Assembly: GCA_023250885.1 (NCBI GenBank)
Contig: JAHEZV010000008.1
Coordinates: 1-32,892 of the forward strand
DNA length: 32,892 nucleotides
Direction of reading: 5' to 3'
DNA from: Nitrososphaera sp.
Lineage (GTDB): Archaea > Thermoproteota > Nitrososphaeria > Nitrososphaerales > Nitrososphaeraceae
In this document: piece by piece, positions 3,509-12,338 of the stretch
Position numbering within the stretch: the stretch's first letter is position 1
How the letters are laid out: every line of letters starts with the position of its first letter
Made by a program: the position numbers and the translations under genes
Notes under the pieces: model-generated
Databases searched by the model: none
What the model was told of the DNA's origin: nothing
What the model saw: the letters and a program-made list of their open reading frames with translations, nothing else

Positions 3509-5176
3509 TTGGAAAAGGCCGTCGCTGCTACGCGTGCAAAGTGGCATACACTTGAGCACAAGGGTGTCGCATTCCCGTCCGAGTACCAGTCAAGGGGGAT
3601 CGTCGTAACGATCAGGGGTGAAAGGCTGGCGCTCAACCCGGATCAGGAAGAGCTGATCTACGCGTGGGCAAAGAAAAAGGACACTCATTACGTGCAGGAC
3701 GCTGTTTTCCAGGCCAACTTTATGAGCGACCTCAAGCCGGTCCTGCCGGAAAAATACCGGAACATTACGATTAAAGATATTGACTTTTCAACTGCTTACA
3801 AATTAGCCGACGAAGAAAAGCGGATGAAGGAGCACGAAAAGGAAAGGTACAAAACCCTTGCAAGGGAAGAAAAGAAAAAGATCTCGCTAGCCAAAAAGGC
3901 CGAGCGTGAACGGCTCAAGGCGACGTACGGCAAGGCGGTGGTGGACGGGGTCGAAGTCGACATCGCAAACTGGCTGGTCGAGCCGCCGGGATTGTTCATG
4001 GGCCGCGGCCAGCACCCGATGCGCGGGCGGTGGAAGCCACGCGTCAGGCCGCAGGACGTTACGCTGAATCTGGGAGAAAACGCGCCTGTGCTTGAAGGCA
4101 GCTGGAAAGAGGTGGTCCACGACCAATCGTCAACCTGGCTTGCCACCTGGATGGAAAACCTGACTGGCAAACGCAAGTACGTGTGGCTACACGACTCTGC
4201 CGCGCTCAGGCAGGAGAACGACAGGGCAAAGTACGACAAGGCGAAAAAGCTGGCCGAGCAGGAGGGCAGGGTGCACCGCGAAGTGATAAGGAGGATGATG
4301 AAGGGAGGTGACAAGACCGCAACGGTGGCATATCTCATTTTGAAACTTGCCATGAGGGTGGGCGACGAAAAGGACCCTGACGAGGCCGATACGGTGGGCG
4401 CAAGCACGCTCAGGGTCGAGCACATAAAGTTCCCGCAGGCAGGCGGCAATATAGAATTCAACTTTTTGGGCAAGGACAGCGTCCCCTGGCAGAAGAACCT
4501 TGAAGTCAATTCGGACGACACAAAGGCACTGTATCAAAACCTGAAGAAATTCATGCAGGACAAAAAGCCCAGCGACCCGATCTTTGACGGCATCAACTCG
4601 CGCAAAGTAAACGCCTTCCTGCAGGAGATAATGCCGGGGCTGACTGCCAAGGTGTTCAGGACCTGCATTGCCACAAGGGTAGTGCAGCAAGAGCTGTCAA
4701 AGGCCAGAATTGACGGGAGCTCTTCGGAGGCTCGGAAAATCTATGCCGCCAGGAGGGCAAACCTTGAAGCCGCGGTCAAGTGCAACCACAAAAAGGGGGT
4801 CGATCCAAAGAACCCGGCTGCAAAGAAAGCGCTTGAAAAATTCGAAGAAACGATAGCCAAGAAGAAGGAGGCAGTACAGCAGTTAAATGCAGACATTGCG
4901 GCCAGAAAGTGGAAGACCAAGCTTCAGGAACAGCGGCTGAAAGAGCGGCTGGAAAAGATGGAAGTGCAGCTGAAACTGCAGCAGGAAACGCGCGACTACA
5001 ACCTTGGCACGTCGCTTCGGAACTACATCGACCCGCGCGTCGTGAAAGCATGGCTCAACTACGTAGAGCTTGACTGGACAAAGGTCTACACGGCGACGCT
5101 CCAGCGCAAGTTCAAGTGGGTCGAGAGCCACAAGGACAGGAACTTCCGGACGTTCTACCCCGAGACGAAAAACTAG
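3509..5176 (+). CDS. DNA topoisomerase IB (eukaryote-type)
   Basis: A 555-residue type IB topoisomerase that relaxes supercoils through a 3'-phosphotyrosyl intermediate. The N-terminal core begins HTLEHKGVAFPSEY. A lysine-rich helical part follows, then the catalytic domain, a coiled-coil linker (about 415-490) and the C-terminal LGTSLRNYIDPRV motif. Y506 aligns with human Tyr723. Topoisomerase IB is known as a hallmark that separates Thaumarchaeota from most other archaea. The start is TTG 3509; no ATG or GTG occurs in frame before the conserved core. A TATA-like element (AAGGTTTAAG, about 3471-3480) lies about 30 bases upstream; a second AT run at 3496-3504 is too close to serve this start. 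The gene is monocistronic. Confidence 0.93.
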   Translation: MEKAVAATRAKWHTLEHKGVAFPSEYQSRGIVVTIRGERLALNPDQEELIYAWAKKKDTHYVQDAVFQANFMSDLKPVLPEKYRNITIKDIDFSTAYKLADEEKRMKEHEKERYKTLAREEKKKISLAKKAERERLKATYGKAVVDGVEVDIANWLVEPPGLFMGRGQHPMRGRWKPRVRPQDVTLNLGENAPVLEGSWKEVVHDQSSTWLATWMENLTGKRKYVWLHDSAALRQENDRAKYDKAKKLAEQEGRVHREVIRRMMKGGDKTATVAYLILKLAMRVGDEKDPDEADTVGASTLRVEHIKFPQAGGNIEFNFLGKDSVPWQKNLEVNSDDTKALYQNLKKFMQDKKPSDPIFDGINSRKVNAFLQEIMPGLTAKVFRTCIATRVVQQELSKARIDGSSSEARKIYAARRANLEAAVKCNHKKGVDPKNPAAKKALEKFEETIAKKKEAVQQLNADIAARKWKTKLQEQRLKERLEKMEVQLKLQQETRDYNLGTSLRNYIDPRVVKAWLNYVELDWTKVYTATLQRKFKWVESHKDRNFRTFYPETKN

Positions 5177-7876: not shown

Positions 7877-7969
7877 GCCGGGGTAGCTCAGCTTGGTTAG
7901 AGCGTACGACTCATAATCTCAGAAAAATAAGAAATCGTAAGGTCGCGGGCTCAAATCCCGCCTCCGGCA
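7877..7969 (+). tRNA. tRNA-Met (CAT) with 18-nt canonical intron
   Basis: Acceptor 7877-7883 pairs with 7962-7968 (one G-T pair), discriminator A7969; no full CCA is encoded. The D arm is GCTC/GAGC, and the T arm is GCGGG with loop CTCAAAT. The anticodon stem TACGA (7905-7909) pairs with TCGTA (7935-7939) only after removal of an 18-nt intron at 7916-7933, placed at the canonical 37/38 site; the mature loop is CTCATAA with anticodon CAT. It is likely elongator tRNA-Met; a CAT-anticodon isoleucine tRNA (modified at C34) cannot be excluded from sequence alone. The intron boundary can slide by one A. Confidence 0.9.
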
Positions 7970-8629: not shown

Positions 8630-8640
8630 GATTATATATG
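8630..8640 (+). promoter_or_regulatory. TATA box of the tRNA-Phe gene
   Basis: GATTATATATG lies 24-34 bases before the first acceptor base at 8664, the standard archaeal TATA distance. Confidence 0.55.
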
Positions 8641-8663: not shown

Positions 8664-8753
8664 GCCGTCGTAGCTCAGCCTGGGAGAGCACTCGACCTTT
8701 TTGGGGTGAAGCTGAAGACCGAGCTGTCGTGAGCTCAAATCTCACCGGCGGCA
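8664..8753 (+). tRNA. tRNA-Phe (GAA) with 16-nt intron inside the anticodon stem
   Basis: Acceptor GCCGTCG (8664-8670) pairs with CGGCGGC (8746-8752), discriminator A8753. The D arm is GCTC/GAGC. The T arm is GTGAG, loop CTCAAAT, CTCAC. Read without splicing, the anticodon arm does not fold: CTCGA faces CCGAG and U33 is missing. Removing exactly 16 nt (8695-8710, ACCTTTTTGGGGTGAA) gives stem CTCGG/CCGAG and loop CTGAAGA with anticodon GAA, a normal tRNA-Phe. The splice point is therefore between positions 30 and 31, not the canonical 37/38. I could draw only a relaxed bulge-helix-bulge around the junctions. The purB stop on the opposite strand lies 2 bases downstream. Confidence 0.88.
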
Positions 8754-10862: not shown

Positions 10863-12338
10863 TTGAGCGAGCTTGTTACAAGGAGCGGCAACCACAGGGT
10901 CAGGAAGGTAAGCGATCTAGAATACCGCATAGACCCAAACCCGGCCACGGGCATGAAGGTCCCAGTCACGATCTACGCAAATGATTCTTTGATTTCAAAA
11001 ATGGTAACTGACAGGACAATCGACCAGGCGGCAAACGTCGCGACGCTGCCTGGGGTTAAGAAACACGTCGTAGTGCTGCCAGACGGCCACGAGGGCTACG
11101 GCTTTCCTGTCGGCGGAGTGGCCGCGACTGATATTGAAGAAGGGGTCATCAGCCCCGGCGGCGTGGGCTATGATATCAACTGCGGCGTCCGGCTTGTGAG
11201 GACGAACCTGACAGAAAGCGACTTGCGGCCGCGGCTAAAAGATCTTGTTAACGAGCTTTTTAAGTCAATCCCCTCCGGCGTCGGGAGCGAGGGTGCAGTC
11301 AGACTTACAAAACCCCAGCTTGACGAGCTCTTGGTGGAAGGCGTAAGATGGGCTGTTCGGCACGGCTACGGAACCGAGGACGACGCAGAGGTGTGCGAAG
11401 AGGGAGGTATGATGGCCGGCGCAGACCCCGCAAGGGTTTCAGACACTGCAAGGAAGAGGGGCGCGCCCCAGCTCGGGTCGCTGGGCTCGGGCAACCACTT
11501 TCTTGAAGTGCAAAAGGTGGACAAAATTCTCGATGAGCGGGCGGCCAAAGCGATGGGCATCAACCAAGCAGGGCAGCTGACGGTGCTTATCCACTGCGGC
11601 TCGCGCGGCTTTGGCCACCAAATATGCACGGACTATCTGCGCGTTTCTGAATCTGCGCTGCGGAAATACGGGCTGACGCTTGCAGACAGGGAGCTTGCGT
11701 GCGTTCCCAACAATTCCAAGGAGGGAGAGGATTATAGAAAAGCAATGTATTCCGCTCTTAATTTTGCGTGGGCAAACAGGCAGATGATCACCCACTGGAC
11801 GCGCAAGACGTTCGAGCGCGTTTTTAAAGCTGGCGAGGACGGCCTTGACATGGATCTCGTTTACGACGTTGCGCACAACATTGCCAAGGTGGAGCGCCAC
11901 AAAGTGGATGGGGAGGGCACCCGCAACGTGGTGGTGCACCGAAAAGGTGCCACGAGGGCGTTCCCGGCAGGCATGGAGCAGGTGCCGGGCAGATATCGAA
12001 GCATAGGCCAGCCGGTGATAATCCCGGGCTCTATGGGGACTGCCAGCTGGATTTTGCTTGGAAACAAAAACTCGCTTGACCTCAGCTTTGGCTCGACTGC
12101 GCACGGTGCCGGCAGGACTATGTCAAGGTCAGCCGCAAAGCGCAGCTACACTGCAGAAGGCGTGAAAAGCGGATTAGAATCAAAAGGCATCTACGTCAAG
12201 GCGCTGACAAGGGAAGGCATCGTCGAAGAAACGCCCGAAGCCTACAAGGATGTCGACGCGGTTGTCAACGTGTCGCACTCGCTTGGCATAGCCACCAAGG
12301 TCGTGAGACTCGTGCCAATAGGGGTGATAAAGGGCTGA
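10863..12338 (+). CDS. rtcB: RNA-splicing ligase RtcB
   Basis: A 491-residue GTP- and Mn-dependent RNA ligase that joins 2',3'-cyclic phosphate and 5'-OH ends, the ligase of archaeal tRNA splicing. Key features: LPDGHEGYGFPVGG, the metal-binding cysteine in GVGYDINCGVR (C107), GNHFLEVQ, HCGSRGFGHQ, and the guanylylated histidine in STAHGAGRTMSR (H414). No intein is present. The start is TTG 10863, giving a normal N-terminus. It overlaps the PDCD5-like gene by 4 bases, so the two are probably translationally coupled. Two intron-containing tRNA genes lie 2-3 kb upstream; both should depend on this enzyme. Confidence 0.96.
   Translation: MSELVTRSGNHRVRKVSDLEYRIDPNPATGMKVPVTIYANDSLISKMVTDRTIDQAANVATLPGVKKHVVVLPDGHEGYGFPVGGVAATDIEEGVISPGGVGYDINCGVRLVRTNLTESDLRPRLKDLVNELFKSIPSGVGSEGAVRLTKPQLDELLVEGVRWAVRHGYGTEDDAEVCEEGGMMAGADPARVSDTARKRGAPQLGSLGSGNHFLEVQKVDKILDERAAKAMGINQAGQLTVLIHCGSRGFGHQICTDYLRVSESALRKYGLTLADRELACVPNNSKEGEDYRKAMYSALNFAWANRQMITHWTRKTFERVFKAGEDGLDMDLVYDVAHNIAKVERHKVDGEGTRNVVVHRKGATRAFPAGMEQVPGRYRSIGQPVIIPGSMGTASWILLGNKNSLDLSFGSTAHGAGRTMSRSAAKRSYTAEGVKSGLESKGIYVKALTREGIVEETPEAYKDVDAVVNVSHSLGIATKVVRLVPIGVIKG
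12323..12328 (+). promoter_or_regulatory. Shine-Dalgarno for the PDCD5-like gene
   Basis: GGTGAT within GGGGTGATAAAGGG, complementary to the archaeal 16S 3' end, ends 6 nt before CTG 12335. It lies inside the rtcB coding end and is the main reason for choosing the unusual CTG start. Confidence 0.55.

What the first reader, a model, noticed from the sequence alone, without database searches (positions are those of the whole stretch)
8664..8753. tRNA-Phe with a 16-nt intron inside the anticodon stem (30/31)
The unspliced sequence gives no valid anticodon arm, but removal of exactly 8695-8710 yields a fully paired stem CTCGG/CCGAG and a GAA loop. Non-canonical tRNA introns are known in archaea, but this position for Phe in this lineage would need the splicing endonuclease to accept a relaxed structure; I could not draw a perfect bulge-helix-bulge. 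Automatic tRNA callers may report it as undetermined or with a wrong anticodon.
Basis: seen in the sequence. Interest (0 to 1): 0.65.

Follow-up and report, generated by a model that had tools for sequence, protein, structure and literature searches.

The report
tRNA-Phe gene with anticodon-stem intron
This archaeal phenylalanine tRNA gene is interrupted by a 16-base intron in an unusual but already known place; nearly all of its relatives carry an intron at the same spot, with the structure that the tRNA-splicing enzyme recognises, so it is a sound annotation correction rather than a new phenomenon.

Summary
8664-8753 (+) is a tRNA-Phe(GAA) gene interrupted at 30/31 by 16 nt (8695-8710, ACCTTTTTGGGGTGAA). 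ARAGORN miscalls the unspliced gene Lys(TTT); the spliced sequence is called Phe(GAA). It is the only Phe(GAA) gene found in the 95%-complete assembly. Only the outer helix is weak, which is the known relaxed (HBh') form. In a same-family survey of 70 genomes a Phe gene was found in 61; 58 carry an intron at exactly this site (15-42 nt), always with the 4-bp helix and a strongly covarying inner stem. Three same-genus genomes lack it. Other families of the order also have it. The genome encodes a two-protein splicing endonuclease whose catalytic subunit has a CSL-like K-P-K loop, and the window itself holds an RtcB ligase gene. Position 30/31 and thaumarchaeal non-canonical introns are published. 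Verdict: real, a new member of a known kind, modest interest. Splicing itself was not observed.

The parts
8632..8639 (+). Putative TATA box (TTATATAT) upstream of the tRNA
   Evidence: Sequence; a similar GATTATATA stretch lies at about the same distance in L037, L038, L039 and L041. Promoter activity is inferred.
8664..8694 (+). 5' exon of tRNA-Phe(GAA), positions 1-30
   Evidence: ARAGORN on the spliced sequence
8689..8692 (+). 5' strand of the central 4-bp helix H (C25 A26 C27 U28)
   Evidence: 4/4 paired in all 63 family introns; 100% of cells paired
8693..8695 (+). 5' bulge C29 G30 ^ A+1; 5' splice site between 8694 and 8695
   Evidence: BHB geometry; conserved in relatives
8695..8710 (+). 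16-nt intron at position 30/31
   Evidence: identical intron in G027 (L041) and G034 (L052)
8696..8704 (+). Inner stem-loop h' (CC/GG closing UUUUU)
   Evidence: 2 bp here; 2-9 bp and covarying in relatives
8705..8708 (+). 3' strand of helix H (GGUG, intron -6 to -3)
   Evidence: U28 faces G or A, and C28 faces G in outgroups
8709..8711 (+). 3' bulge A-2 A-1 ^ G31; 3' splice site between 8710 and 8711
   Evidence: BHB geometry; conserved
8711..8753 (+). 3' exon of tRNA-Phe(GAA), positions 31-73, anticodon GAA at 8714-8716
   Evidence: ARAGORN spliced call
10863..12338 (+). RtcB tRNA-splicing ligase gene, the likely exon ligase
   Evidence: Pfam PF01139, E 2.9e-177

Best explanation
8664-8753 is the organism's single-copy tRNA-Phe(GAA) gene. 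Its transcript carries a 16-nt archaeal-type intron at 30/31. In the pre-tRNA, C25-U28 pair with GGUG near the intron's 3' end and the intron interior forms a small hairpin, which places 3-nt bulges at both splice sites (CG^A and AA^G). The two-subunit tRNA-splicing endonuclease cuts in the two bulges, and RtcB joins G30 to G31 to give a mature tRNA with a paired CUCGG/CCGAG anticodon stem and GAA anticodon. Shown: the gene, the unique splice boundaries, the conserved and covarying motif, the single copy in this assembly, and the presence of endonuclease and ligase genes. Inferred: that cutting and joining occur, and by these enzymes.
For: Spliced sequence is called Phe(GAA), unspliced miscalled. 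BHB-guided deletion gives this one product. 58 of 61 family genomes with the gene have an intron at exactly 30/31, 50 distinct intron sequences of 15-42 nt, helix H 4/4 in all 63 genes. Covariation 0.429 against 0.161 +/- 0.020 shuffled, 0/500 reaching it, and at most 0.106 when slid. The site is also used in several other families of the order. No other Phe(GAA) gene in this assembly, nor in single-contig genomes G007, G008, G009 and G027. Two tRNA_int_endo proteins; the catalytic one matches the endonuclease chain 3p1z_B at E 1.4e-44, with the Y, H and K regions aligned and a K-P-K loop. RtcB lies in the window.
Against: No RNA evidence was available. The outer helix of the BHB is only 2 bp (G24-C32, A23-U33) and competes with the D stem, and the thermodynamic MFE of the naked pre-tRNA is neither a BHB nor a cloverleaf. 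In the window gene itself the inner stem has only 2 bp.
Confidence: 0.96

Rival explanations
1. The gene is a tRNA-Lys(UUU), as ARAGORN calls it, without an intron.
For: ARAGORN's default call is Lys(TTT).
Against: The anticodon stem is mismatched. A separate Lys(TTT) gene with an ordinary 37/38 intron exists (L014). Many relatives have other bases where the UUU lies, while the GAA loop is invariant.
Confidence: 0.01
2. It is a tRNA pseudogene disrupted by a chance 16-nt insertion; a functional tRNA-Phe lies elsewhere.
For: The assembly is 95% complete, so a second copy could be missing; splicing was not observed.
Against: The insert is at the identical site in 58 of 61 family genomes with purifying selection on pairing, and single-contig genomes have only the interrupted copy.
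Confidence: 0.02
3. The intron is removed at other boundaries or needs a sequential or special route (for example a strict hBHBh' is never formed and only one splice site is recognised structurally).
For: The outer helix is weak and conflicts with the D stem.
Against: No other BHB deletion yields a tRNA that ARAGORN accepts. Relaxed motifs are cut efficiently by (alpha-beta)2 enzymes (PMC6379350), and S. tokodaii EndA cut anticodon-stem and D-arm introns at the predicted BHB-like sites (PMC4307357).
Confidence: 0.03

Closest known systems
Archaeal non-canonical BHB tRNA introns (Marck and Grosjean class; Thaumarchaeota set in tRNAscan-SE 2.0)
   Same: Position in the tRNA body other than 37/38, 3-nt bulges around a 4-bp helix, small intron, (alpha-beta)2 endonuclease; thaumarchaeal examples are common enough for a dedicated model (PMC8450103). 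Position 30/31 is listed (PMC4090602).
   Different: No difference in kind. I found no paper text that names this tRNA-Phe intron; its listing in GtRNAdb could not be checked.
tRNA-Phe 30/31 introns of the other genomes of the same family and order (L040-L101, L216, L217, L222, L230, L239, L240)
   Same: Same gene, same site, same BHB; the intron in G027 (L041) is letter-for-letter identical.
   Different: Length and loop sequence; some outgroup families instead have D-arm or 37/38 introns, or none.
Split tRNA-Lys(CUU) of Nanoarchaeum equitans and Staphylothermus, joined at 30/31
   Same: Same junction position, joined at a BHB (PMC3218864).
   Different: Those are trans-spliced from two genes; here one continuous gene.
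A. pernix tRNA-Trp and S. tokodaii tRNA-Leu introns in the anticodon stem
   Same: Introns inside the anticodon stem; the exon-intron borders agree with the predicted BHB-like structures, and for S. tokodaii EndA cleavage was shown (PMC4307357).
   Different: Different tRNA and lineage; here no experimental proof yet.

Membership tests
Archaeal BHB (endonuclease-type) tRNA intron | Removal restores a complete cloverleaf with a coherent anticodon | tested here: met
   ARAGORN spliced call Phe(GAA), all arms paired
Archaeal BHB (endonuclease-type) tRNA intron | Central 4-bp helix with 3-nt bulges, cleavage after bulge nt 2 | tested here: met
   H 4/4 in the window and in all 63 family genes; bulges CG^A (one gene CG^T) and A(A/T/C)^G
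Archaeal BHB (endonuclease-type) tRNA intron | Inner helix h' supported by covariation | tested here: met
   All four inner pairs have changes on both sides; 51 cells against 20.2 shuffled, 0/500
Archaeal BHB (endonuclease-type) tRNA intron | Strict form only: stable outer helix h as well | tested here: not met
   Only 2 bp (G24-C32, A23-U33), competing with the D stem; this places it in the relaxed HBh' subtype of the same family (PMC6379350), it is not a requirement for the family as a whole
Archaeal BHB (endonuclease-type) tRNA intron | Cognate splicing endonuclease and RtcB ligase encoded | tested here: met
   Two PF01974 proteins, PF01139 in the window
Archaeal BHB (endonuclease-type) tRNA intron | Excision observed in RNA | not testable with these tools
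   No transcriptome data here
(alpha-beta)2 endonuclease with crenarchaea-specific loop | Catalytic subunit with Y/H/K and the loop bearing Lys-Pro-(Lys/Arg) | tested here: met
   L035 protein GIPKPKGTDFDAP aligns with DVEKPRGADFEGP of 3p1z_B; DFAVY, GIDHAP and VKKQF also align. Loop rule from PMC12397907. Relaxed-substrate activity of this enzyme was not tested.

The most novel reading that the evidence does not exclude
The intron is kept in tRNA-Phe across the family because it does something beyond being removed, for example controlling the order of modification of the anticodon arm or giving a functional excised RNA; its loss in three same-genus genomes would then mark a lineage that no longer needs it.
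Probability: 0.04. Interest if true: 0.45.

Novelty: new member of a known kind. Interest (0 to 1): 0.2.

Why it matters
Practically, the gene is miscalled as tRNA-Lys by a standard tool, so the genome would appear to lack tRNA-Phe. It also adds a well-sampled case for intron turnover: one tRNA, one site, 58 genomes with the intron and 3 without in the same family, and different intron positions in the same tRNA in neighbouring families.

Tried and rejected
Lys(TTT) reading: rejected by the stem mismatch, by a separate Lys(TTT) gene and by orthologues. Sliding the intron boundaries: not possible. A second Phe gene at G000:C31 (BLAST hit 7-39): read by eye as an interrupted gene with a CUGUAG loop (probably tRNA-Tyr), not Phe. 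The idea that the Phe and neighbouring Met introns were lost together by one event: weakened, because G029 and G040 lost only the Met intron. Thermodynamic folding of the naked pre-tRNA was uninformative. A first version of the intron script failed on a bad pattern and was rewritten.

Full report
What is there. The sequence at 8664-8753 on the + strand is a tRNA gene. ARAGORN calls the unspliced gene tRNA-Lys(TTT), with a defective anticodon stem. A whole-genome covariance search scores it 43.2 bits, although it was not reported in the faster window scan with the same family. Removing 8695-8710 gives tRNA-Phe(GAA) with every stem paired. The boundaries cannot be slid. When all deletions flanked by a 4-bp helix with 3-nt bulges and an inner stem of at least 2 bp were tried on the 90-nt gene, exactly one gave a tRNA that ARAGORN accepts, and it was this one.

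Structure of the splice sites. C25-A26-C27-U28 pair with intron bases -3 to -6 (GGUG). The 5' bulge is C29 G30 ^ A and the 3' bulge is A A ^ G31. The intron interior closes with CC/GG around UUUUU. An outer helix of only two pairs (G24-C32, A23-U33) can form, and it competes with the D stem. In published terms this is a relaxed HBh' type of bulge-helix-bulge.

Relatives. A survey of 70 genomes of the same family found a Phe gene in 61. In 58 genomes (63 genes, 50 distinct introns of 15-42 nt) the gene is interrupted at exactly 30/31; helix H is 4/4 paired in all. Recombining intron halves at random lowers the mean inner stem from 4.14 to 2.36 pairs (maximum 2.92 in 2000 trials). On 40 distinct rows, 95.0% of cells pair (shuffled 81.0), covariation is 0.429 (shuffled 0.161 +/- 0.020; 0/500), and sliding the partner by 1-3 columns drops it to 0.106 or less. 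The pairs of the inner stem alternate C-G, U-A, A-U and G-C. The rows were cut from the two ends of each intron, which presupposes the end-anchored register; the slide control tests that register. Shuffles ignore relatedness, so the slide control is the stronger of the two.

Three same-genus genomes (L037-L039) lack the intron and have stem CTCCG/CGGAG instead. In other families of the order the 30/31 intron also occurs (L216, L217, L222, L230, L239, L240), while further families have D-arm or 37/38 introns in the same tRNA, or none (the positions in these outgroups were assigned by eye).

Is it the only tRNA-Phe? Among the tRNA hits of the own genome none other is Phe, and a pattern for the Phe 3' exon occurs once in this assembly and once in each of eight other genomes, including single-contig ones. 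The assembly is 95% complete, so a missing second copy is unlikely but not excluded.

Machinery. The genome encodes two tRNA_int_endo proteins, as expected for the alpha2-beta2 endonuclease that PMC4090602 assigns to Thaumarchaeota. The 181-aa one aligns end to end with the solved endonuclease chain 3p1z_B (E 1.4e-44; Aeropyrum pernix by my knowledge), with the Tyr, His and Lys regions aligned and a K-P-K loop at the place of the A. pernix K44-P45-R46 (residues from PMC12397907). PMC6379350 and PMC12397907 tie that loop and its lysine to relaxed substrates. The RtcB ligase gene lies at 10863-12338 in the same window. That these enzymes act on this transcript is inference. That the organism is a thaumarchaeon of the family Nitrososphaeraceae is inferred from the eukaryotic-type topoisomerase I and the labelled relative.

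What is known. PMC4090602 lists 30/31 among archaeal intron positions. PMC8450103 reports 107 non-canonical introns in Thaumarchaeota and a dedicated model. PMC3218864 describes split tRNA-Lys joined at 30/31. PMC4307357 shows anticodon-stem introns matching BHB-like predictions in Crenarchaeota. The window's genome has further non-canonical introns, including one at 30/31 in tRNA-Pro(GGG). The finding is therefore real and well supported, but ordinary for its lineage.

Noticed in passing
L022 (G000:C44:14768-14869): tRNA-Pro(GGG) of the same genome has a 27-nt intron, also at 30/31, with a full BHB and an 8-bp inner stem.
   Followed up: partly
L037, L038, L039, L053, L054; window 7877-7969: Stepwise intron loss in the genus: G026, G030 and G042 lack both the Phe 30/31 intron and the intron of the tRNA-Met(CAT) upstream; G029 and G040 lack only the Met intron.
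   Followed up: partly
L071, L098-L101 (G041): One genome of the genus carries five tRNA-Phe genes, four with acceptor GCCGCTG and longer introns of 33-42 nt with a pyrimidine-rich 5' half.
   Followed up: no
L216 (G194): A tRNA-Phe gene that appears to hold two introns, one in the D arm and a 13-nt one at 30/31.
   Followed up: no
L025 (G000:C75:18457-18563): ARAGORN calls Ala(AGC); removing a 33-nt BHB intron in the anticodon stem gives Asn(GTT), another miscall of the same sort.
   Followed up: partly
L102 (G000:C31), L103-L105: A heavily interrupted tRNA, probably Tyr(GTA) with two introns including one in the T arm, seen in four genomes read here and missed by the Rfam search of the genome.
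   Followed up: no
window 3509-5176: Eukaryotic-type DNA topoisomerase I, a thaumarchaeal hallmark.
   Followed up: no
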